IMG/VR virus record: IMGVR_UViG_3300046167_000279
Span: 1 to 30,635 of that record
Length of the DNA stretch: 30,635 nucleotides
Strand: one strand, 5' to 3'
From: a virus
The notes beneath the pieces are model-generated. The model was given only the letters and a program-made list of their open reading frames with translations, was not told the DNA's origin and made no database searches. Positions 14,858 through 29,181 of this stretch are shown piece after piece (the stretch's first letter is position 1; each line of letters starts with the position of its first letter). A program made the translations under genes and the position numbers.

Positions 14858-17800
14858 ATGTCTATAGGAAATGCTAATATACACCAAGTTAGTGAGATAC
14901 CAGAAATCACTAAGCTACCTAATGGTAGATTAAGAGTTGTACGAAGATTTAACAAGTTTACACGAGAAGATGTAGATAATGCCAATTATGGTAGCCTGCT
15001 AGGCGATTTTGGCGATCTAGATACAGAAGGTCAACAGATAGTTAACCAAGGTTATACTAATCTAAAGTTAATATCAGTTGAAGTAGATAGTCGTTTTAAT
15101 GCTGTTACAAACAATTCTAATGCTGTATTAGTAAAGACCTATGAAACGCTCACATCTTCGTTTGTACAGGTTACAGATGAAGATCAGATAGAAGAGCTAG
15201 AGAACGGATTAAAAAGGCTTACAAGGGTACTCAGAGCTCAATCTGGTACTGCATACAATGGAGATGTAGGAATAACTACTGCTGGTAGTTCTTTAGCTAG
15301 TTTTATTTTATCTAAATCTGATTTAAAAGATAGTGGTGCATTTGCTGAATTAACATTAACTTTTCTTACTACAGGTATAACAGATGTAAGAGAAGATATT
15401 ATTGGATCTCAAAAAGCTATTGTTATTACAAAAGTAGGTAGCGAACCTACGGCTTTAGAAGCATCAGCAAAAAGTGATATTTCATATGATGACAGTTCCG
15501 ATTGGTCAATAGCTAGAAAAGATGTTACACGAGAAAGTGGATTAGAAATATATACATATACATTCTTATTAGATAATACTGTTTTATCTCAATCAAAAGA
15601 TGAACAAAATAGCTTAAAGACAGAGGTAATAGAGGTATTTAATCCAAAGGTTACTATTGATGGTCTTACCCTTGAAGGTGGTAGCAGTGTAGCTGGAAAT
15701 TACTTTTTAAAAACTCAACAATTTGGTGGAAAAAATATATACACACAGAGCCAGGGAGATACTTTTCCAAAAACTGTATCATATAATACATATGATTCAT
15801 CTTGGAAGGTTAGCCAATTTAGTGGTGTTTATGCAGTTAGCACAGATACAAATTCAGAAAATGAAATAGATCCACCATTAACTGGTTGGAATGGAACTGG
15901 TAATAATGAGGTTACTAATATTATTTTTAGAGAATTTGACCAGACATTGCCAAATAGCACATCTGCATATGAGTTATCTCATAGATATGACAAAGAAGGT
16001 TACTCTTTAATTAATATACAAAGGTCAAACCTAGATGGTATACCCACAATGAGGTATACATTTGCTAAAGATAATTCTGTAATTTCTGTATCTGAAGACA
16101 AGGTTGGCTCACAGAATGCAATAGTAAATGAGATTTTTAATCCTAGCTCAGAAACAATAACTGGAGTAGATTCAGATAATGTAGCATTAAGTAATTACTC
16201 AGAAGCAGATAGAACTGAAAGTAACTACGAGGGAATTAAGACTATTCGGGTAAGATTTCTTAAAGACAATGTTTTGTTATCCCAAACCGAAGATAAGGTA
16301 GGCTCTCAAAATAGAATTATAAAAGAAGTCTTTAATCCAACTGGTGGAACACCAGCCCCGTTAGGTGGATATATATTAGCAAATGAAGAATCATCTAATG
16401 TTAATGGTATTGCCACTAAAAGGGTTACATTCTTAAAACAGAATACTGTATTGTCCGTTAGTGAGGATAAGGTAAGTTCTCAAAAAGCTATAGTCAATGA
16501 AATTTTTGATCCAACAGGTACAATTTCTGGGGAAGATGCATCTGGATCTCCGTTAAGTGGGTACTCAGAAGCAGATAGATCAATTAGTGAAGTTGAAGGA
16601 ATAGAAACAGTTAGAGTAAGATTTCTCAAAAACAATGTAACATTGTCTACATCTGAGGATAAAGTAGGATCTCAGTTAGCAATAGTGAAGGAAACTTTTA
16701 ACGGGACTCCTAGCACTCCTAGTGGATATTCTATAGCTGATAAATCAGTAAGTAGCGTAGATGGTATCCCTACTCGCAGATTTAGGTTTCTTAAAAATAA
16801 TGTAACACTATCTACTAGCGAAGATAAGGTAGGTTCTCAGTTAGCTATTGTAAAAGAGGTTTTCAATGGGACACCTGCTACACCTTCTGGATACTCTATA
16901 GCCGATCAGCAAGTATCTAATGTAGATGGAATAGTTACTCGCAGGTTTAGATTTCTTAAAAACAATGTAACTCTACAGACAACAGAAGACAAAGTAGGGT
17001 CACAGCTTGCAATAGTCAAAGAAGTTTTTAATGGTACTCCGAATACTCCTACTGGCTACAGTATAGCTGATAAGCAAATATCTAGCGTAGATGGAATCCC
17101 TACTAGAAGATTTAGATTCCTAAAAAACAATGTAACATTGTCTACAAGTGAAGACAAGATAGGTTCACAATTAGCTATTGTAAAAGAGGTTTTTAACGGA
17201 ACTCCTACTACCCCTAATGGGTATTCTATCGCAAGCAAACAGGAATCTAATGTAGGTGGTATAGCTACCAAACAATTTAGATTCCTTAAAGACAATGTAA
17301 TCCTATCTAGGTCAATAGATGAATCAAGGGCTGACAAGCCAGAGGTTATAGAGTATTTTAAGCCAGCCTCGGTAAGGTTAAGCTCACCTCCAACTGGTAA
17401 AGTTTTAGATAAAAAAGATGAGTCCAATGTAGATGGCATACCTACGGAAAGATATACATTTCGTAAAGATGGTGCTGTATTAAATATTAACGAAGATAGA
17501 ATAGGTGCTCAACAAGCTGTTGTAGTAACAAAATATAATAGCGATCCAACTTCAAGCGATGTAGAAAGTTTTACAGGAGATAGTGGTTTAACATATGTTA
17601 TAGCCAGAAAGGTTAAAAATGGAAAAGAGCGAACATTTACCTTTATGGAATCTAATGCACTTTTATCTGTAAGCGAAGAAAAAGTAGGCTCACAGAATGC
17701 AATAGTAAATGAAATATTTAAACCCACTAGTGAAGCTAGTATTCCTTGCAAAGATGTAGATGGAAATAGTCTAAGTACACATACAGAAGCAGATAGAACT

Positions 17801-20194
17801 GAAAGTAATCATGATGGAATAAAAACAGTTAGGGTTCGTTTTCTAAAAAACAATGCAATACTTTCTACCAGCGAAGATTTAATAGGTTCTCAGAAGGCTG
17901 TAATTATAGAGAAATTTGGCAATACAGCACCAGCCATAACTAATAATGATGTCAATGGCATTGATTTAACTGATGATTACATTATTGCTAATAAGCAAGA
18001 ATCAAGCGTAGATGGTATTAAGACATTTAGGTATACTTTTTTACAAGAAGATACAGTTCTTTCTCAATCAATTGACAATGAATCTCCATTATTGACAGAA
18101 GTTCTTGAGGTATTTAAGCCAGTTTCTTCAAGAGCAACTAAGGCCAACTATGTATTAACAAATAAAACAGAGTCCAATGTAAATGGTATACCTACAGAAA
18201 GATATACATTTAAGAAAACTGGTGTTATATTATCCCAGTCATACGAACTAGTAGGATCACAGGAAGCTGTTGTAATATCTAGATTTGGTTCAGCACCTAC
18301 AACAAGTCAAGCTAATGCTTTTGGTGGTAGTAATTATACTATTGCAAAAAAAGAAGAGTCTGGAACTGTTAATCAAAAAACATTTACTTATACTTTTTTA
18401 CAAAATAATGTAACATTATCAATAAGTGAAGATTTAGTAGGTAGCCAAAAAGCAATTGTAATAGAAAAATTTGGCGATACAGAACCAGTTGTTGATGACG
18501 ATGCTGTTACAACAGGTACTCAAGTTGAAGGAGTAGATTTTTCTGGATATTTAATTGCTAAAAGAGATAGATCAAATTTAGATGGTATTAAGACTTTTAG
18601 GTACACATATCTTAAACCAAGTATTTTATCTGTTTCTCAAGATTTTGTAGAAGATGTAAATACTATTCAAGTAACAGCTTTTAATAAAACAGAAGCTCAA
18701 GTAAAAACTGCTTTAACTGAAGTTACTAACAATCATAAATTAATCAATAAAAGAGAGAATGATCACGATGGTATAGTAACAAATACATTTACATTTCAGA
18801 TAAATACATCTGATGTAGTTAGCTATACAGCAAATAATCGCTTACAAGTAGTTAGAACTATATATCAATCATATAATTATAATTATAACTCAATCTATAA
18901 TGTAGGTTCAACTACCATAACATTTAAATCAACAACATTAATTTTATCTGAGTTGCGAGTTGATCAACGAGGGTCAACGGGTTCTTTTACAAGACTAAAA
19001 GCAATATACTTAGAGCCAGGTGAGTCAGCTAGATCAGAAAGCATTGGCCCTAATGGACTTCCAGGAACTGAAAGAATATCAATAACTAGTTCTGGATCAA
19101 CACCTGTTACACTTACAGAAACAGATGATATTAAGTTAATTAACAAACAACAACAAAACAATAATGGTTTTAATGTATTTGTTAGATCATATATAAAGGG
19201 GACGGATGCAACTACTACAACAACTAGCTATGTTAGTGGAAGAACATACAAAATAGCTAGTAATGGTAATTATTCAGCAGTAGGTGGCCCAAGTTCTGGA
19301 ATTATAGGAGATTACTTTCAAGCTAGTAGTAATGGTACAAGTTTAGCATCATATCTTGTAGGACAAATAACTGGAACTAAGATTACTTATGATGACATTA
19401 TATCAGTACCAGTTCCAGGGACTGTTAAGTGTAAACAAAAAAATGCTGAGAGTTCACAAATTACTGAATTTGAAACTGAAGGTGATTTAACTTCAAAATC
19501 TCAAGCATTTATGGAAGTTATTCCACCATCTGAAAAAAATATTAAAGTAGATGTTACTGAATCTATACAAACAAGTATTCCTGATATAACTCAGTTAGCT
19601 TACAATTTAGATGGTATAAATTGTTCTGTTACCAAAATAAAAACTTTTGTATCTCAATCTCCAGGAGGTATTGTAATTGTGGGCACTGGTGCTACTTCTG
19701 TTGGTCATGGATGGTCTAGAAATATACAGTTTAATACAAATAATTCTTATTTCCCAGGATGTTACTTATTAGATAGCAATACTACTCCTTCTACTCTTAT
19801 AAAAGAAGGATTACTATACAGAATTACTTCAGTTCCTGGTAACACTGGTATTGATATTACTACTCTTGGGGCTTCAAGTAATGCTATAGGCACTGTATTT
19901 GTAGCAACAAGTAGTGGTAATTCTAGTAGTTTAGCAAGGTGGATAGGAGCAGAATCATTATTTTCTTATAAATCGGGTAAGGATGTTTCCGCAAGTGGAA
20001 ATTCTGTAGTTAGTAGATATGGCGAATCTGATCAAAAATCAGAATTAGTTCCAACTGGAACAACTGTACAATCAGATGGATCTGCTCCAAGCACTTATGT
20101 TACTACTGGTGTAATTCAACAAAAAGCTCGTCCAGTATTGACTACAATTGACGGAACTACATACTACGAAGTAATAAAATTTAGTAAATCATAG
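14858..20194 (+). CDS. Giant repeat protein, probable tail fibre or spike
   Basis: This 1778-residue protein is dominated by about 17 copies of a 40-70 residue unit whose core reads SEDKVGSQLAIVKEVFN, followed by a variable loop (GTPATPSGYSIA), V(D)GI.T and a FRFLKNNVTLS strand. The strands alternate polar and hydrophobic, as in a long beta-helix or stacked small beta domains. Four consecutive units (about residues 603-822) are exactly 55 residues each and nearly identical. The last 400 residues lack the repeat and may form the tip. Its place between the fibre and the ejection genes suggests a long tail fibre or a tail-length structure. No enzymatic motif was seen. Confidence 0.75.
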   Translation: MSIGNANIHQVSEIPEITKLPNGRLRVVRRFNKFTREDVDNANYGSLLGDFGDLDTEGQQIVNQGYTNLKLISVEVDSRFNAVTNNSNAVLVKTYETLTSSFVQVTDEDQIEELENGLKRLTRVLRAQSGTAYNGDVGITTAGSSLASFILSKSDLKDSGAFAELTLTFLTTGITDVREDIIGSQKAIVITKVGSEPTALEASAKSDISYDDSSDWSIARKDVTRESGLEIYTYTFLLDNTVLSQSKDEQNSLKTEVIEVFNPKVTIDGLTLEGGSSVAGNYFLKTQQFGGKNIYTQSQGDTFPKTVSYNTYDSSWKVSQFSGVYAVSTDTNSENEIDPPLTGWNGTGNNEVTNIIFREFDQTLPNSTSAYELSHRYDKEGYSLINIQRSNLDGIPTMRYTFAKDNSVISVSEDKVGSQNAIVNEIFNPSSETITGVDSDNVALSNYSEADRTESNYEGIKTIRVRFLKDNVLLSQTEDKVGSQNRIIKEVFNPTGGTPAPLGGYILANEESSNVNGIATKRVTFLKQNTVLSVSEDKVSSQKAIVNEIFDPTGTISGEDASGSPLSGYSEADRSISEVEGIETVRVRFLKNNVTLSTSEDKVGSQLAIVKETFNGTPSTPSGYSIADKSVSSVDGIPTRRFRFLKNNVTLSTSEDKVGSQLAIVKEVFNGTPATPSGYSIADQQVSNVDGIVTRRFRFLKNNVTLQTTEDKVGSQLAIVKEVFNGTPNTPTGYSIADKQISSVDGIPTRRFRFLKNNVTLSTSEDKIGSQLAIVKEVFNGTPTTPNGYSIASKQESNVGGIATKQFRFLKDNVILSRSIDESRADKPEVIEYFKPASVRLSSPPTGKVLDKKDESNVDGIPTERYTFRKDGAVLNINEDRIGAQQAVVVTKYNSDPTSSDVESFTGDSGLTYVIARKVKNGKERTFTFMESNALLSVSEEKVGSQNAIVNEIFKPTSEASIPCKDVDGNSLSTHTEADRTESNHDGIKTVRVRFLKNNAILSTSEDLIGSQKAVIIEKFGNTAPAITNNDVNGIDLTDDYIIANKQESSVDGIKTFRYTFLQEDTVLSQSIDNESPLLTEVLEVFKPVSSRATKANYVLTNKTESNVNGIPTERYTFKKTGVILSQSYELVGSQEAVVISRFGSAPTTSQANAFGGSNYTIAKKEESGTVNQKTFTYTFLQNNVTLSISEDLVGSQKAIVIEKFGDTEPVVDDDAVTTGTQVEGVDFSGYLIAKRDRSNLDGIKTFRYTYLKPSILSVSQDFVEDVNTIQVTAFNKTEAQVKTALTEVTNNHKLINKRENDHDGIVTNTFTFQINTSDVVSYTANNRLQVVRTIYQSYNYNYNSIYNVGSTTITFKSTTLILSELRVDQRGSTGSFTRLKAIYLEPGESARSESIGPNGLPGTERISITSSGSTPVTLTETDDIKLINKQQQNNNGFNVFVRSYIKGTDATTTTTSYVSGRTYKIASNGNYSAVGGPSSGIIGDYFQASSNGTSLASYLVGQITGTKITYDDIISVPVPGTVKCKQKNAESSQITEFETEGDLTSKSQAFMEVIPPSEKNIKVDVTESIQTSIPDITQLAYNLDGINCSVTKIKTFVSQSPGGIVIVGTGATSVGHGWSRNIQFNTNNSYFPGCYLLDSNTTPSTLIKEGLLYRITSVPGNTGIDITTLGASSNAIGTVFVATSSGNSSSLARWIGAESLFSYKSGKDVSASGNSVVSRYGESDQKSELVPTGTTVQSDGSAPSTYVTTGVIQQKARPVLTTIDGTTYYEVIKFSKS
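16664..17323 (+). repeat. Four tandem 165-base repeats inside the giant repeat gene
   Basis: The word GTAGG(A/T/G)TC.CAG or its close variant starts at 16664, 16829, 16994 and 17159, a spacing of exactly 165 bases (55 codons) each time. Units are similar in protein but differ at many third codon positions, so they are old or diversifying duplications rather than a fresh copy. The in-frame period allows copy number to change by recombination without breaking the reading frame. Confidence 0.85.
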
Positions 20195-21598: not shown

Positions 21599-23440
21599 AT
21601 GTCGCAATATAATGTAACAAGAGACATTCGTAAGCTAGCTGAAGAAGCTGAGAAAGACAAGAATTTAAACTCAACAGTAACTACTGCTGGGCTTGGGCTA
21701 GGTGGTGGATTTGTAGCTAGCCAGACAGGTGGATCTGCGACTAATCAACCAAGGCCATCTAATCTAACTATTCAAGCTAATGAAGCACAAGCTAGAGCTA
21801 ATCAAGTTAATTTAGATAGGTCAACAAATCAATATAGATCAAATGTAAATCTAAATCAGTTAGATCCAGCTAAAAATGTTAACATTAATAACCCTAATCA
21901 ATTTAAACAAAGCGTAACAAAAAATGTTATAGACGCTACTGTGAACCCACCTAAGTTTACGGCAGGGCCAAGACCAGATTATAGACCAGGAGCGGGAGAA
22001 GCAAAACCTACACCTACTAAGAAAATACCAATAACACCACAAGGTTCACCAACATTAGACGCTAAAGGAAACCCATTAAGGTTACCAAAAGATAATGTTG
22101 TAAAAAATATAGTTGGATCAACTCTTAGTGGCATAGGAAATGTTGCAGATAAAGCATTTAAAATAGCTCCATTAATTATTCCAGATACTGAATTAGGAGA
22201 CATAGAAGCAGATAGAATGGTTGGAATGGGTTACACTGCTGAACAAATGGAAAAATACAGGAGAGGAGAAGATCCAGGCCCATTATTTGATCCAGAATAT
22301 ATGCTTGGCCCTATTAGCTACGCAGATACTATTCCATATTCAGAAAGAAGTGATGTGGAAAAACAAATTTTAGCTAATAGAGAAGCAGGTTTACCATTGT
22401 TACAGGGTACAAATACTTTTAATCAACCACAAATGGTTGATCAGTCAGAAGCACGAGGTCAAAAACAAAATATGCTTCAAGGTAAAGATAGTTTGGGAAC
22501 AGCAACACCAGATCTTCCTAGCTACCAAACTAATTTCATGGAAAGAATTGAAAACAAAGAGCCTATTACGGATACTGAGTTCCAAAGAGCACAAAAATTT
22601 GCACTTAGTAAGGGTATGGTTTTTGATCCTAAAGAGGGTTACTCAAAAGCTGACTTCTTTGGTCAAATGTACAAAGGACAAACCATTGGTCAATTCTTGC
22701 GTGGAGAGGATGCTCCAGAAGGATTTACTGATGTAATAAAAGAAACTGCTGATCCAAGAATAGAATCAAGAAGAGCTTATGAGCAAGCATCTAGAGAAAG
22801 AGAAGAACGATTAGCAAATAGACCAGACTTTATGGAAGCAGTTCCAGATAAGCCAGAAGGTGAGTTATCATTAGGTGATTATAGAAATCTAGCTAGAGCA
22901 GAAGGATTTAAAGGTTCTGCACAAATAGCTCAAGCTAAACTCTTAATGAAAGAAGCTAAAGAAAAAGACAAAATGACACCTTACCAAAAAGCAAGTTTAC
23001 AACGAGGCCTAGCAAGTGATGCTGAATCGCTTAGAAGATATGAAGAAACTAAACAATTTAATCTTGAAAAACACGAAGAGTCAATAAGGCAATACGAAGA
23101 AGGTATTAAATCAGACAAAGATAAACAAGTATTAAAAGACTTAGAAACTAGAGCTAGAGTTAATAAGTTAACTGTTGATACAGATGCAAAATTAGCAGAA
23201 GCAGGTATAACAGAAGTACCAGAAGGTGATTATTCAGATAAAGCTATGAAAGATTACTTAAATGTAGCTGAAAGGCTTGGTTATGTATATGATTTTAAGA
23301 CTGGAGTATTTACAGAAGATAAATTCGGAGGAAGACCTATTGATGAAAAAACATTTAGAGAAGAATTAGAGCCACCACTCAGTCAAACTGATTACGGAAA
23401 GGCATTAATATACATAGAAAGCCAAAAAAAATCTAAATAA
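21599..23440 (+). CDS. Probable internal virion (ejection) protein
   Basis: This 613-residue protein directly precedes the 1912-residue protein by two bases. It has a Gly-rich segment near the N-terminus (TTAGLGLGGGFVASQTGGSA), a long Asn/Gln/Pro-rich disordered part, then a highly charged helical region at about 380-530 (KEAKEKDKMTPYQKASLQRG and RRYEETKQFNLEKHEESIRQ). Paired with a giant neighbour at the end of the virion operon, it resembles the medium-sized ejection proteins of podoviruses that line the DNA channel. No peptidoglycan enzyme motif is visible. Confidence 0.65.
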   Translation: MSQYNVTRDIRKLAEEAEKDKNLNSTVTTAGLGLGGGFVASQTGGSATNQPRPSNLTIQANEAQARANQVNLDRSTNQYRSNVNLNQLDPAKNVNINNPNQFKQSVTKNVIDATVNPPKFTAGPRPDYRPGAGEAKPTPTKKIPITPQGSPTLDAKGNPLRLPKDNVVKNIVGSTLSGIGNVADKAFKIAPLIIPDTELGDIEADRMVGMGYTAEQMEKYRRGEDPGPLFDPEYMLGPISYADTIPYSERSDVEKQILANREAGLPLLQGTNTFNQPQMVDQSEARGQKQNMLQGKDSLGTATPDLPSYQTNFMERIENKEPITDTEFQRAQKFALSKGMVFDPKEGYSKADFFGQMYKGQTIGQFLRGEDAPEGFTDVIKETADPRIESRRAYEQASREREERLANRPDFMEAVPDKPEGELSLGDYRNLARAEGFKGSAQIAQAKLLMKEAKEKDKMTPYQKASLQRGLASDAESLRRYEETKQFNLEKHEESIRQYEEGIKSDKDKQVLKDLETRARVNKLTVDTDAKLAEAGITEVPEGDYSDKAMKDYLNVAERLGYVYDFKTGVFTEDKFGGRPIDEKTFREELEPPLSQTDYGKALIYIESQKKSK

Positions 23441-23442
23441 TT

Positions 23443-26400
23443 ATGGCAAGTTTTGAAGATCTTGAATCAAAGATTCCGTCAATAGATGAATTGCAAGAAC
23501 GAATACTTGCAACAGAGAGACGAATAATGTCTCCAGAAGAAAAAGAAGAAGACGAACCTCTTCGTTTACCTTTTGTAGAAAGCGAAAAAGCTGATTCAAC
23601 ATTAGCTAGCGATTATATAAAAAGTTTTTTTGGTGGATTTTCAGATCTTCCTTTACAAACTACTGAAGGTTTTGCTTCTATATCTGGCAATAGAAAACTA
23701 GCTAACGCTGTATCTAGAACTCGTGATAATGTAAGAGATGCAATTACTGGAGATGTACCAGATGAAATTAAATCTAATTTTTCATACAAGATACCAGATG
23801 CTATAGCAAAAATACCAGGATATGTTTTATTAGCTATAGGAACTAGAGGTAGATCACTAGCTGTGAGAGGAGCAAGTTGGTCTGGATTAGGTGCAAACGC
23901 ATTTCAACAAGGTGTTGACGATTTTGTATCTAGCACTGGTGATCCAAATAGAGATCTTACAGAAGAAGAATTTAAACAATCTAGAATTGCAGGTGCAGTA
24001 ACTATGCCAGTTGTTATGTCATTAGAAAGATTTGGTGGTAAACAAATAGCTGATGCTGTATTTCAAGGAGCTAAAACTGTTACGGCAGGAAAAGCATTAT
24101 CAAGAGTAACTCAATTTGCAAAAGCACCTACAGCAGAAGCTGTAACGGAAGGTTTGCAAACTTTTGCACAAAATTATATAGCTAAAGAACTACAAGGATA
24201 TGATCCAGATCGTGAGCTATCTGAAGGTGTTATTGAGTCAATGTTGTTAGGTGGAATTGCTTCTGGAACATACACAGTTCCTGCACAATTATTAGCTCAA
24301 CATGATCAATTAAGTGCTGGTATTCAAAATGGCGAAATTAATCCAGAAGAAATGAATAGCGATCTAGGTAGACAACTTATGTCTACAGGAATAGAAAACG
24401 AAGGAGTTCCACATATAGATACTGAAGAAGCCAAAAAAATGCATAGCCCAGATAGCGTAAAAGGATTTATAAACGATGTGCTTGTACCATTATCTAGCAA
24501 GATAGGTAAAGCAGGTGCAGGAAAAGAATTACAAAACGCATTTCGTACATTTGAAAGAGATAACGCAGTACAACAAGGTAGGGCAGAACAGTTAATTACT
24601 CCGTTCCTAAATGACATACAGAATTTAAAAAAGAAAAGTCCAGAAGACTACGAAGCACTAGCTGATGCTTTGGCAAATGCATCTTTACTTAACAAGACAA
24701 CTGAAACGGAAGTAGTTAGGAAAGAAGATCCAAATGAAGTTGCAGACAATGATGTAGCAGAAGTTGATAATTCATTACCAGTAGGAACTGAAACAACAGA
24801 AACATTTATACAAAATGGAGTTAAGACTGAAATAAAAAGAAGAGGTCTTACCCAAGAAGAGGTAGATCAAGGTATAGATCCAGGATCTATAAATCAAAAA
24901 TTTAATTTGGTAAAAAACACAGTAGCTAACGCTAGAGTAGCTATGAAAGATATTTTACCAGATGTGCAGTTTAGTTTATATAGAACTAATCAACAGTTTA
25001 AAGATGCTACAGGAATACAGGACGATGTAAAGGGTGCATATGTAAATGGAAAAATTTATATTAACTCAGAGCTTGCTGATCCTACAACAGTTGGTCACGA
25101 AGTATTCCATGCTTTATTTTTGCAAAACACAGGAGAGGGACAAGTAGCATACGATGGTGCAAATGAGTTACTCAATACAGTTTTAAGATCAACAACTAAC
25201 GAAGAGCTAAAATCATATATAACTGATTTTGCCTCTAATTATGATTCTAATATACAGAGCGAAGAATCATTAGCTCAAATGTTTGGTGTAATGTCTGGAA
25301 CATATGGTAGCTTAGATGTATCTACAAAAACAAAAATAAAAGCCTGGTTTTCTAAAGTAGCTAAAGCTCTTGGTATAGATGGTGTATTCACACAGGAATC
25401 AACTGATGCTGAAATAATCAATGGGTTAAATTCTATGGCACAAGGTGTAGCTAGGGGCGAAAGCATTGCTGGGACAAGTTTTAAGATACCAAAAATATCT
25501 GGAAACGATATAGATACAAAATACCAAGCTAGATTCCAATCTGGATATGTAGATGAAAGAACAAATTTCGTATATGGATATTTAAAGAATCAAGAAAGAT
25601 TTACAGAACTAATTAAGGGTGGCAGAATAACTAAGAATAGAGTACTAGGTGATTTTAATGTTCCTATGTTGGTTCATCGTCCAGATAATTTCTTTACAGG
25701 AGATATTAAATACAATGATGAAACCCTAGTAGAGGGAACAGGTGGTATATTCTTTCCTGCAAACAATGATTTATTTTGGGCAGGATCTAAGGGTGGTGCA
25801 TCAACTATAGTTAATCGTTTAAATGAACAACTAGATAACTTAGGTAGCGACAAGGTAAGAATGCTATTAGTATCTGCTCCTCTTGAGAAGTCAGAAAGTA
25901 ATTCTGAATTTGCTAAAGGTGTAGCAAAAGTAAGCTACAGAGGTGTAATGCAAACTATACCACAAGAGTATAGAAAACAATTTGAAACTGATTTTAGAAA
26001 AGCATTATTAGATGCAGAATCATTTAGCCATGATCCCAAAAAGAAACCAATGGGTAGTTTGGGAATTGATTATAAAAAAGATTCTATTGAAAATATTTTT
26101 GCTGAGTTAGATGCAAAGATAACTGCTGACAAGACATTTGATCAGAGAAAATCTTTTACTCGTGGTTTTGTAAGATCTCTAGCTAACAAAAGTGAATATG
26201 GTTCAAAGGAAAAAGGACAAGACAAATACAATGTAGTTCTTCAAGAAGCTATTTTAGATATGCTAGCTTCGTCTAAGTATAGAGAACAGAGTTCATATTT
26301 TTTAAAAAGAAAAAGAGCAGTTACGAAAAAACCAAACGCTGAATATATGAAAGGTTTTCAAGCAATGTTTAGTGAACCATTGCTCAGAGATTTTGATTCA

Positions 26401-29181
26401 GTAATAGAGGGAGACTTGCCTACAGATCACGCATATGCAGTTATTGAAATGGATGGTAAGGTAGAATCAGTAGACCTTGGTGGCGAAAACTCATCTTATA
26501 CACACGGGATACAATCAGTAAGTGGAAATAAACCAACTATTCATTTATTAAAAGATAGAGCAAGTTGGGATTCATTTTATCAATACAAAGGTTTTCACGG
26601 AGACAAAACAGATAAACTACAAGTAATGCCATCGGGTGGTCTATCTACAGTTAACTTTAATAACTACAATAATGATTATAGTAAATTCAAAATATCTGAA
26701 GAAAGAATTTTTGAGGGTATGTTTAGAGGCAATAAAGAGTTAGAAAATTTATTTGAAACTGTTTATCCAAAGGATATGAGAGTCCGATTACAGAAAGTAA
26801 CTGAGTTTCAATATACTGATGAAGAAGCTATTAATGCATTGCCCAAAAAAGAGAAAGCTAAGTACAATAGACATAAAACAGAAAGAATCCCAATGGGTGC
26901 TATCCGTCTAAATCTAGGTTCTAAGTTTACCAAAGAGGGTGTTGAAGGGCCTCTGTTCGTACAAACATTACATAAGATTGGTAAATCTGGTAAACCAAAT
27001 TACGGAGAAGCACATAGCTATGGTCGTGCATTTACTGTAAAGGATGCTTCATTTACTGTTAATCCAATAGCTACTGCGTTAATTAGAAATGGTGCGATGA
27101 ATAAATTCCCAATGGCTAGTGTTAATGGCAGAGTTGATTACGAGCAAGAAGGAAGTTTAGAGGGAGAAAAACTTTCATTTAATCCGATATTCAATGATTT
27201 TTTTGTAGATAGCCAAGGCAGGTTTGTTAAGGGTGCAGAAGAAATAACTGTTTATGGCAGAGGAGCTTATGCTCGTGGAAAGATTGAATACTTTGACGAA
27301 GCTCCCGAAACTATTCCAACTACAGATGATGTTGTTGCTTTCTTGAAAGGTAAGAAGTTTGTTCATCCTATCTTTCACCCAAGAGGATTGGTAGCAGGTA
27401 AGAGTATTAAGGATAAGCAAAAAGTACTAAATAAAATTAAGGAAAAGAAAGCCTTAGAAGCTCAAGAGAAACAAGAACAATTAGGTCAGCTAGAGTTGCG
27501 TATGCAAAAAGGAGAAAACGAAACCTACGAACAAGTTCGTGACAGAATCCTAGCTAAACACAATATGGGCGATAACTACAAAATCGTATCTGATTTATTA
27601 CAGAATCTATATGATGGTGGTAGAGGAGTAGGTATGGATGTTGGCTATCTAGAAAACTTTTTCCCAAGGCTGGTAAAGGATGTTCGTGGATTACAGGATT
27701 CTTACACAGGAGAGTTGTTTGATACAGAAATACAAAGAGAGCTAGATTTAATTGAAAGAAAAAGAGGTAAGACATTAGAAGGCTACGAAAGGCAAAACAT
27801 TATTGAAAATATTGTAAAAAGAAAAAGCATTAAGATGAGTCTAGGTGGCATGACACCAGGAAATATAAAGGAAAGAACTATTGAGGTTATAGATAGGAAT
27901 CGTAGGGCAAAATACTATGCATCCCCCGAAGAGTCATTACTAAACTATACACAAAGTATGATTGCTTCAATAAATCAAGCTAAATTGTTAGGAACAACCA
28001 ATCGCAGAAAGGGCGAAGTTTTAGAAGGTGGAAAACTAGCTGAGATTATAAATAGAAATCTTGAAGCAGGAACAATTAGTAACGAGGGAATTAAAATAGT
28101 TCAAGATGCAGTAGATGCTCGTTTTGGTAGGCACGGAAAACAATCAAGTGTTATTAAGGGATTAAAAAATGCAGGGTACATAGCCACAATGGGTAATGTT
28201 GGTTCAGCAGTAACTCAGCTAGGTGATTTTTATTTTACTGGAGTCCAGACAGGAGTTTTCAATACGATTGCTGGTTTCGCAAAAACACTAGCTAGCAAAG
28301 ATCGTATCACCCGTGAGGATGTTATGGGAGCTAGAAATATTGTTACCATTGAAGCACAAGAGGGTGCAGGTGCATTGGCTAATGCAGTAGATTGGTTCTT
28401 CAAAGCATCTGGTATTACGCAGATAGATGGAATAGCTAAGACCACAAACATCAATGCCAACTACTCAATGATGAGGAAAGCTGTTAGAAATCAGAACAGC
28501 AAACAATACAAAAAACTATTCAATGAGCTAGTAAAAACACAAGGGATGCGTGACGCATCTAAGGCTATATCTGATCTCCGTTCGGGAATAAAGAGCGACC
28601 AAGTATTGCAGGCTCTGTTCAATAGATTGTCAGATGTAGCTCCTATTTCTCTTATAGAAATGCCACAGGCATACGCTGAAAATCCTAACACAAGAATCCT
28701 ATATAGCTTGAAGTCATATACGATTAAGCAGTTTGACTTTCTTCGTCAGCAATCTTTCCAAAAGATGGCTAAGAAAGATACATTCGCAGAGGGATTCACA
28801 AATCTATTTAGAATTGGTATGCTGGCGATGTTAGCTAACGGATCAGCAGATGTATTAAAAGCAATCCTATTCAATCGTGAGATTGACGAAGAAGATTTGG
28901 TATTCAATAACATACTCCGTGTATTCGGTGTAACTAAATACACTACAGTGAAAGCTCGTAAGGAAGGTATTGGTGAAGCACTTATATCAACAGTTGCACC
29001 TCCACAACTCGGTATCTTGAATGATTTATCTAAAGATGTAGTGAGAGCTATTGATGAGGGCGAGATTGATATAGATGAACTACGATCAGTTAAGTATATA
29101 CCACTAGTAGGTAAGCTATACTATTGGAGAGAAGGTCGTGGGGTAGGAGTAGAAGAGAGGCTATCTAGATTGAAAGACTAG
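23443..29181 (+). CDS. Giant internal virion (polyvalent) protein with zinc-peptidase motif
   Basis: This 1912-residue multidomain protein is the largest gene. Residues 552-556 are HEVFH, the HExxH zinc site, and EESLAQMFG at about 607 supplies a candidate third ligand, as in gluzincins. A second region (about 742-1100) starts LVHRPDNFFTG and includes GTGGIFFPANNDLFWAGSKG, a recurring module of large phage proteins. A hydrophobic helix pair lies near 1575-1615. The C-terminus (about 1750-1900, LYSLKSYTIKQFDFLRQQSF) resembles large polyvalent protein domain LPD38. Such proteins are packed in the head and injected with the DNA. The peptidase may act in maturation or in the host. Confidence 0.8.
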   Translation: MASFEDLESKIPSIDELQERILATERRIMSPEEKEEDEPLRLPFVESEKADSTLASDYIKSFFGGFSDLPLQTTEGFASISGNRKLANAVSRTRDNVRDAITGDVPDEIKSNFSYKIPDAIAKIPGYVLLAIGTRGRSLAVRGASWSGLGANAFQQGVDDFVSSTGDPNRDLTEEEFKQSRIAGAVTMPVVMSLERFGGKQIADAVFQGAKTVTAGKALSRVTQFAKAPTAEAVTEGLQTFAQNYIAKELQGYDPDRELSEGVIESMLLGGIASGTYTVPAQLLAQHDQLSAGIQNGEINPEEMNSDLGRQLMSTGIENEGVPHIDTEEAKKMHSPDSVKGFINDVLVPLSSKIGKAGAGKELQNAFRTFERDNAVQQGRAEQLITPFLNDIQNLKKKSPEDYEALADALANASLLNKTTETEVVRKEDPNEVADNDVAEVDNSLPVGTETTETFIQNGVKTEIKRRGLTQEEVDQGIDPGSINQKFNLVKNTVANARVAMKDILPDVQFSLYRTNQQFKDATGIQDDVKGAYVNGKIYINSELADPTTVGHEVFHALFLQNTGEGQVAYDGANELLNTVLRSTTNEELKSYITDFASNYDSNIQSEESLAQMFGVMSGTYGSLDVSTKTKIKAWFSKVAKALGIDGVFTQESTDAEIINGLNSMAQGVARGESIAGTSFKIPKISGNDIDTKYQARFQSGYVDERTNFVYGYLKNQERFTELIKGGRITKNRVLGDFNVPMLVHRPDNFFTGDIKYNDETLVEGTGGIFFPANNDLFWAGSKGGASTIVNRLNEQLDNLGSDKVRMLLVSAPLEKSESNSEFAKGVAKVSYRGVMQTIPQEYRKQFETDFRKALLDAESFSHDPKKKPMGSLGIDYKKDSIENIFAELDAKITADKTFDQRKSFTRGFVRSLANKSEYGSKEKGQDKYNVVLQEAILDMLASSKYREQSSYFLKRKRAVTKKPNAEYMKGFQAMFSEPLLRDFDSVIEGDLPTDHAYAVIEMDGKVESVDLGGENSSYTHGIQSVSGNKPTIHLLKDRASWDSFYQYKGFHGDKTDKLQVMPSGGLSTVNFNNYNNDYSKFKISEERIFEGMFRGNKELENLFETVYPKDMRVRLQKVTEFQYTDEEAINALPKKEKAKYNRHKTERIPMGAIRLNLGSKFTKEGVEGPLFVQTLHKIGKSGKPNYGEAHSYGRAFTVKDASFTVNPIATALIRNGAMNKFPMASVNGRVDYEQEGSLEGEKLSFNPIFNDFFVDSQGRFVKGAEEITVYGRGAYARGKIEYFDEAPETIPTTDDVVAFLKGKKFVHPIFHPRGLVAGKSIKDKQKVLNKIKEKKALEAQEKQEQLGQLELRMQKGENETYEQVRDRILAKHNMGDNYKIVSDLLQNLYDGGRGVGMDVGYLENFFPRLVKDVRGLQDSYTGELFDTEIQRELDLIERKRGKTLEGYERQNIIENIVKRKSIKMSLGGMTPGNIKERTIEVIDRNRRAKYYASPEESLLNYTQSMIASINQAKLLGTTNRRKGEVLEGGKLAEIINRNLEAGTISNEGIKIVQDAVDARFGRHGKQSSVIKGLKNAGYIATMGNVGSAVTQLGDFYFTGVQTGVFNTIAGFAKTLASKDRITREDVMGARNIVTIEAQEGAGALANAVDWFFKASGITQIDGIAKTTNINANYSMMRKAVRNQNSKQYKKLFNELVKTQGMRDASKAISDLRSGIKSDQVLQALFNRLSDVAPISLIEMPQAYAENPNTRILYSLKSYTIKQFDFLRQQSFQKMAKKDTFAEGFTNLFRIGMLAMLANGSADVLKAILFNREIDEEDLVFNNILRVFGVTKYTTVKARKEGIGEALISTVAPPQLGILNDLSKDVVRAIDEGEIDIDELRSVKYIPLVGKLYYWREGRGVGVEERLSRLKD

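What the first reader, a model, noticed from the sequence alone, without database searches (positions are those of the whole stretch)
23443..29181. 1912-residue putative injected protein joins a zinc peptidase, a recurring central module and an LPD38-like end
HEVFH at residues 552-556 with a downstream EESLA gives a complete gluzincin-type site inside a probable ejection protein. The central LVHRPDNFFTG/GTGGIFFPANND region looks like a separate folded module, possibly an effector acting in the host. Phage polyvalent proteins are known to enter the cell with DNA, so an active peptidase could cleave host defence proteins or process the protein itself.
Basis: partly seen in the sequence, partly recalled or inferred. 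Interest (0 to 1): 0.72.

Follow-up and report, generated by a model that had tools for sequence, protein, structure and literature searches.

The report
Phage protein: peptidase plus reader-like domain
A very large protein, probably packed in a phage particle and injected with its DNA, carries an apparently complete zinc-peptidase site followed by a widespread, undescribed phage domain whose predicted fold most resembles YTH/EVE domains, which read chemically modified bases in DNA or RNA.

Summary
The 1912-aa ORF (23443-29181) and its motifs are real. HEVFH sits in a predicted zincin domain (474-688). Across 75 distinct homologues H552, E553 and E608 are invariant and H556 is kept in 70 (5 have HExxE). 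The AlphaFold2 model's best structural matches there are zincins (PPEP, Certhrax, lethal factor). The central region (691-1077) is a true separate module: 84 distinct copies in giant phage ORFs, usually directly after the zincin, sometimes apart from it or without it, and swapped as a cassette between close phages. It matches no Pfam, PHROG, NCBIfam or PDB sequence family. Modelled alone (pLDDT 83.8, pTM 0.85), its best matches are seven YTH entries, then an EVE restriction enzyme, an EVE protein and an ASCH domain, all PUA-superfamily folds; Z is at most 6.9, so this is suggestive, not proven. Invariant Trp779 falls at the YTH cage Trp. The 'LPD38-like end' is not supported in the window, although four relatives carry LPD38 matches there. 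A gp82-like domain (about 1178-1276) follows the module. Best reading: an injected polyvalent protein with a known-type processing peptidase and a new, reader-like effector domain. Function is inferred; nothing here was assayed.

The parts
23443..29181 (+). 1912-aa ORF, last gene of the structural/ejection block, putative virion-carried polyvalent protein
   Evidence: position after terminase, major head protein and other structural genes; same relative position as gp18 'structural protein' of Flavobacterium phage elemo
23443..24852 (+). N-terminal region, residues 1-470, function unknown; found only in the close relative L003
24862..25506 (+). zincin-like metallopeptidase domain, residues 474-688
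   Evidence: profile from 75 distinct homologues; AF2 helix - 3 strands - HExxH helix - Glu helix; structural matches to PPEP, Certhrax, lethal factor
25096..25110 (+). HEVFH, residues 552-556 (two Zn ligands and general base)
   Evidence: H552, E553 75/75; H556 70/75
25240..25242 (+). Tyr600, near-invariant, candidate transition-state residue as in PPEP/lethal factor (inference)
   Evidence: 69/75
25261..25275 (+). EESLA, residues 607-611; E608 is the best candidate third Zn ligand
   Evidence: E608 75/75, E607 66/75
25513..26673 (+). central module, residues 691-1077, YTH/EVE/ASCH-like (PUA superfamily) predicted fold with a helical insertion
   Evidence: 84 distinct copies; AF2 model pLDDT 83.8, pTM 0.85; structural matches
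25675..25686 (+). HRPD, residues 745-748, loop after first core strand; P747 and D748 invariant
   Evidence: 84/84
25774..25785 (+). FWAG, residues 778-781; invariant W779, candidate base-cage Trp
   Evidence: W779 84/84; register opposite YTHDF2 W432 in hhalign, itself not significant
25894..26427 (+). helical insertion of the module, about residues 818-995, between strands 3 and 4 of the core; 130-207 aa among members
26488..26499 (+). NSSY, residues 1016-1019 (consensus HxSY), loop between strands; S1018 and Y1019 near-invariant
   Evidence: 79/84 each
26974..27270 (+). Phage_L5_gp82-like domain, residues 1178-1276, function unknown
   Evidence: PF25735 E 1.1e-4 (below cut-off) in the window; homologue in L029 E 4.6e-12 (above cut-off); window to L029 phmmer E 4e-17
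27343..29178 (+). C-terminal region, residues 1301-1912; LPD38 not confirmed; no relatives found
21599..23440 (+). 613-aa gene directly upstream (2-base gap), conserved in the close relative; putative partner ejection protein (inference)
   Evidence: L003, E 4e-203

Best explanation
This is a phage polyvalent protein: a giant multidomain protein probably packed in the capsid of a short-tailed phage and injected with the DNA. Shown by computation: a zincin domain with an apparently complete catalytic site, followed directly by an independent, exchangeable module. Predicted, moderately supported: the module has a PUA-superfamily fold closest to YTH/EVE/ASCH domains, with a helical insertion and an invariant Trp at the place of the YTH cage Trp. 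Inferred mechanism: during or after delivery the peptidase cuts the polyprotein near the conserved linker (residues 672-691) and frees the module, which binds a modified nucleobase in host or phage nucleic acid and so blocks, marks or guides an early step of takeover (for example shielding modified DNA from type IV restriction, or engaging modified host RNA).
For: Zincin: H552/E553/E608 in 75/75 and H556 in 70/75 distinct homologues; AF2 shows the zincin order helix, three strands, HExxH helix, Glu helix; nearly all of the top 25 structural matches are zincin-fold proteins (PPEP-3 Z 7.7, 150 aligned, 4.0 A; Certhrax 7.6; lethal factor 6.8); best PDB sequence match is IrrE, E 0.0055, over strands plus HExxH. 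Module: 84 distinct copies; of 102 module ORFs 92 have the zincin, 81 within 20 residues, but it also occurs hundreds of residues away or without it; replaced as a cassette between phages 93% identical downstream. Fold: module-alone model pTM 0.85; rows 1-7 are YTH entries (Z 6.9-5.7, 118-149 aligned, 3.6-4.0 A), then EVE VcaM4I 4.6, EVE Atu2648 4.1, ASCH TRIP4 3.8; other rows mostly cover the helical insertion; YTH also in the two-domain model. W779, P747, D748, G753, K816, E978 84/84. Polyvalent context: ART-PolyVal in two module proteins, LPD38 matches at the C-terminus of four; zincin MPTases are the commonest polyvalent domain and proposed processors (PMC5512222).
Against: YTH Z is below 8, which the tool says can be a common arrangement; Foldseek itself gave no significant PDB match. 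Profile-profile to YTH is not significant (probability 0.9%, P 0.06; shuffled columns can score higher), and none to EVE. YTH and EVE Pfam models hit none of 59 records. No N6-methylase of two families in 30 module phages, so reading the phage's own m6A is unlikely. Virion packaging rests on gene position and the annotation of a homologue; no mass-spectrometry source was found. No cleavage site was shown. Five homologues have HExxE.
Confidence: 0.5

Rival explanations
1. The zincin is an injected effector protease that cleaves host (defence) proteins, and the module is its substrate-binding or delivery domain.
For: Best structural matches of the zincin include secreted, substrate-specific peptidases; module lies directly downstream in 81 of 92 cases; effector proteolysis is one option listed in PMC5512222.
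Against: The module also occurs without the zincin or 228-552 residues away, so it is not an obligate exosite; the zincin stays 85% identical while the module is replaced.
Confidence: 0.25
2. The module is an enzyme or binding domain of unknown fold; its likeness to YTH/EVE is a generic alpha/beta-barrel resemblance.
For: Z at most 6.9, no Foldseek hit, no sequence-profile support; many invariant polar residues (D748, K816, R902, E978, E1002) look enzyme-like.
Against: Matches to the beta core are coherent: YTH, EVE and ASCH, three families of one superfamily, and almost nothing else.
Confidence: 0.3
3. Purely structural ejection protein (inner body or trans-envelope channel part); the zincin acts only in capsid maturation and the module has no role in the host.
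For: Homologue annotated structural protein; in N4 the HExxH-bearing C1 region belongs to the CTD that autoinhibits the RNAP, with no cleavage role described in the passages read (PMC12633501).
Against: Cassette replacement and patchy domain mix fit conflict effectors better than a conserved structural part.
Confidence: 0.15

Closest known systems
Phage polyvalent proteins with zincin-like MPTase (Iyer et al. 2017, PMC5512222), e.g. N4 virion RNAP, P1 DdrB
   Same: giant multidomain protein beside virion genes; HExxH zincin; relatives carry ART-PolyVal or LPD38
   Different: contains a module not matched by any Pfam LPD model; no PUA, ASCH, EVE or YTH term occurs in that paper's main text
Flavobacterium phage elemo gp18 (structural protein, 3694 aa)
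   Same: zincin plus module in the same order (28% identity over about 600 aa); last gene of the structural block
   Different: twice as long, DUF3293 upstream, unrelated N- and C-terminal parts
YTH domains (YTHDF1-3, MRB1)
   Same: predicted fold; Trp after strand 2 followed by helix and strand
   Different: phage module has a roughly 130-207-aa helical insertion and no significant sequence similarity
EVE domain of VcaM4I (EVE-HNH restriction enzyme, PMC7897488)
   Same: PUA-superfamily fold among the matches (Z 4.6)
   Different: no nuclease fused; no sequence-profile match; base binding untested
PPEP / anthrax lethal factor zincins; IrrE (M78)
   Same: zincin core with HExxH and a downstream Glu
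   Different: about 10-15% identity to PPEP and lethal factor; not assignable to either family

Membership tests
Zincin-like MPTase of polyvalent proteins | HExxH in a helix and Glu in a second helix | tested here: met
Zincin-like MPTase of polyvalent proteins | three-stranded sheet with preceding helix | tested here: met
   AF2 model, H10-31, E39-43, E61-64, E67-71, H77-93, H135-153
Zincin-like MPTase of polyvalent proteins | proteolytic activity / self-processing | not testable with these tools
   needs assay
Phage polyvalent protein | multiple unrelated domains in one large polypeptide encoded beside virion genes | tested here: met
   zincin, module, gp82-like domain; head and packaging genes upstream
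Phage polyvalent protein | packaged and injected | not testable with these tools
   inferred from position and homologue annotation
LPD38 (PF18857) | profile match at the C-terminus | tested here: not met
   no match at E<=10 in the window; hhalign 0.5%; matches in relatives L066, L064, L043, L030
YTH (PF04146) | sequence profile match | tested here: not met
   0 of 59 records at E<=10; hhalign not significant
YTH (PF04146) | YTH fold | tested here: inconclusive
   best structural matches, Z 5.7-6.9
YTH (PF04146) | aromatic cage (W432, W486, W491 in YTHDF2) | tested here: inconclusive
   W779 invariant and in register with W432, Y1019 a candidate second wall; no coordinates compared
EVE (PF01878) | sequence profile match | tested here: not met
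   0 of 59 records; hhalign no match
EVE (PF01878) | EVE fold | tested here: inconclusive
   VcaM4I Z 4.6, Atu2648 Z 4.1
PUA superfamily | five-strand barrel core | tested here: inconclusive
   strand order fits with an insertion; only a predicted model
Phage_L5_gp82 (PF25735) | profile match | tested here: inconclusive
   window below cut-off (E 1.1e-4), its homologue above

The most novel reading that the evidence does not exclude
Many phages inject a peptidase-coupled, exchangeable YTH/EVE-like reader of modified bases: a new class of polyvalent effector domain, a counterpart to the EVE and YTH sensors that bacteria and archaea use in type IV restriction.
Probability: 0.35. Interest if true: 0.82.

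Novelty: new variant of a known kind. Interest (0 to 1): 0.6.

Why it matters
Zincins in polyvalent proteins are known, but what they release is mostly not. Here the zincin is paired with one defined module that recurs in over 80 distinct phage proteins, is nearly absent from bacterial genomes (one MAG contig), and has no entry in Pfam, PHROGs or NCBIfam. If it reads modified bases, phages would deliver at the moment of entry the same kind of sensor that hosts use for modification-dependent restriction, which can be tested directly with one purified 390-aa domain.

Tried and rejected
C-terminal relatives: none in viral contigs or phage records. LPD38 for the window: rejected. ADP-ribosyltransferase identity for the module (my first guess): no ART-PolyVal match in the module; ART occurs as a separate stretch in L025 and L049. 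Foldseek alone: no significant PDB hit for either model. Direct profile link to YTH or EVE: not significant. Weak Pfam hits (Herpes_UL36, DUF5700, RNaseH_C) are scattered and sub-threshold. Self-modification model: no PF01555/PF02086 methylase in 30 phages, C5-methylase in 9 at E<=0.001 (6 over the cut-off), no control set. No paper on the elemo virion proteome was found.

Full report
What is there. The ORF 23443-29181 encodes 1912 residues. HEVFH lies at 552-556 and EESLA at 607-611, as stated, and the central motifs at 743-753 and 765-776. HExxH is found once, against 0.013 expected from composition. The window is a 30.6-kb virus record with terminase large subunit, major head protein and another virion protein upstream by PHROG match. 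The ORF is the last of that run, starting 2 bases after a 613-aa gene. A near relative (contig IMGVR_UViG_3300046733_000229, L003) keeps the same neighbours. Flavobacterium podophage elemo has the same relative arrangement, ending in gp18, a 3694-aa 'structural protein' that aligns to window residues 471-1070 at 28% identity.

Zincin. Iterative searches gave 75 distinct homologous domains. H552, E553 and E608 are invariant, H556 is present in 70 (the other five have HExxE), Y600 in 69, E607 in 66, and G672 in all 75. AF2 on residues 471-1085 with 56 sequences predicts helix, three strands, HExxH helix, and a later helix bearing E607/E608, the core described for polyvalent MPTases (PMC5512222). 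VIA-align matches are PPEP-3 (Z 7.7), Certhrax (7.6), PPEP-2 (7.4), lethal factor (6.8) and, lower, aminopeptidases and IrrE. The zincin profile's best PDB sequence hit is IrrE, E 0.0055, over the strands and HExxH. These Z values are middling, but the matches agree with each other and with the motif. I take the zincin assignment as about 90% secure. Activity and target are not shown.

The module is real and independent. Residues 691-1077 recur in 102 ORFs (84 distinct sequences), in ORFs of about 1060-3850 aa (some cut by contig ends). 92 have the zincin too and 81 have it within 20 residues; in L041, L059, L060, L071, L103 and L104 it is 228-552 residues away, and seven ORFs whose module is not at a cut end lack it. 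Elemo gp18 and L006 are 93.4% identical over the last 1616 residues and 85% in the zincin, yet the module of elemo is replaced in L006 (and L007) by another sequence. That replacement has the same motif order (WAS, S[AG]..K[LF], H.[ST]Y), found in no other of 1606 non-family ORFs; the pattern was chosen after inspection and hhalign sees only a 23-column fragment, so distant kinship is only a lead. One of the loci comes from the bacterial genome collection, a MAG contig. No Pfam, PHROG, NCBIfam or PDB-sequence family matches the module consistently across 71 diverse members.

What the module resembles. The module alone modelled well (pLDDT 83.8, pTM 0.85, 71 sequences). Foldseek gave nothing significant. 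VIA-align on Foldseek's candidates gave YTHDF3 and YTHDF1 (Z 6.9; 145-149 residues; 3.9-4.0 A), YTHDF2 (several entries) and yeast MRB1 (5.7-5.9), then VcaM4I (EVE-HNH enzyme, 4.6), Atu2648 (an EVE protein by my own knowledge; 4.1) and TRIP4 (ASCH domain by my own knowledge; 3.8). Most remaining rows, such as spider-silk domains, match only the helical insertion. The larger model had already given a YTH match (Z 6.4). YTH, EVE and ASCH are all PUA-superfamily domains (PMC7897488, PMC7641849), so three families of one superfamily account for nearly all matches to the beta core. Against this, all Z are below 8, and sequence profiles do not support it: hhalign to YTH had probability 0.9% and score 17.7 (shuffled columns mean 12.6, maximum 20.9), although its register set W779 opposite YTHDF2 W432 and the following strands in the expected order; EVE gave nothing, and YTH and EVE Pfam models hit none of 59 records. 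W432 and D422 line the m6A pocket of YTHDF2 (PMC12371494). In the module W779, P747, D748, G753, K816 and E978 are 84/84. I put the PUA-like fold at about 65-70% and base reading at about 40%.

Other parts. Residues 1178-1276 resemble Phage_L5_gp82 (below cut-off in the window; its homologue in L029, E 4e-17 to the window, is above it). Residues 1301-1912 and 1-470 found no known family. LPD38 is not supported for the window, though matches lie at the C-terminus of L066, L064, L043 and L030; only L066 of these passes the curated cut-off.

Mechanism. Shown by computation: apparently complete catalytic residues, fold-level zincin, modular and exchangeable neighbour domain. Inferred: packaging and injection (position, homologue's annotation, and the published concept of polyvalent proteins, PMC5512222); cutting between 672 and 691 to free the module (G672 invariant, low-confidence linker in the model; no direct evidence); binding of a modified base by the module. 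Host protein cleavage remains a rival. The absence of two N6-methylase families in 30 module phages, with C5-methylase in 9 at E<=0.001 (6 over the cut-off) (no control set), makes reading of the phage's own m6A unlikely; host-made marks or cytosine marks are more plausible.

Novelty. Zincins in injected polyvalent proteins are known. The module is an undescribed domain in the libraries searched, and no PUA, ASCH, EVE or YTH term appears in the main text of the founding polyvalent paper. I class the finding as a new variant of a known kind.

Noticed in passing
L095, L096, L097, L099, L101 (zincin domains): Five homologues have HExxE (HEAWE/HEIWE) in place of HExxH; metal binding may be altered or lost.
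   Followed up: partly
L006 and L007 versus L002 (elemo gp18): Cassette downstream of the zincin replaced by a different sequence with the same motif order while the flank is 93% identical.
   Followed up: yes
L025 and L049: ART-PolyVal (PF18760) lies next to the module in proteins without a detected zincin.
   Followed up: partly
window 26974-27270; L029: Domain related to mycobacteriophage L5 gp82 (PF25735) inside a giant polyvalent-type protein.
   Followed up: partly
L002:14617-14826 (elemo gp18 residues 1323-1392): DUF3293 domain (PF11697, E 1e-12) upstream of the zincin in elemo gp18.
   Followed up: no
window 14858-20194; L003:2792-6559: The 1255-aa relative in L003 of the window's 1778-aa protein contains many repeats of a short motif like 'ESNYEGIKTIRVRFLKDD'; purpose unknown.
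   Followed up: no
L067: Only bacterial-collection copy of the module, on a MAG contig; probably phage-derived, not checked.
   Followed up: no
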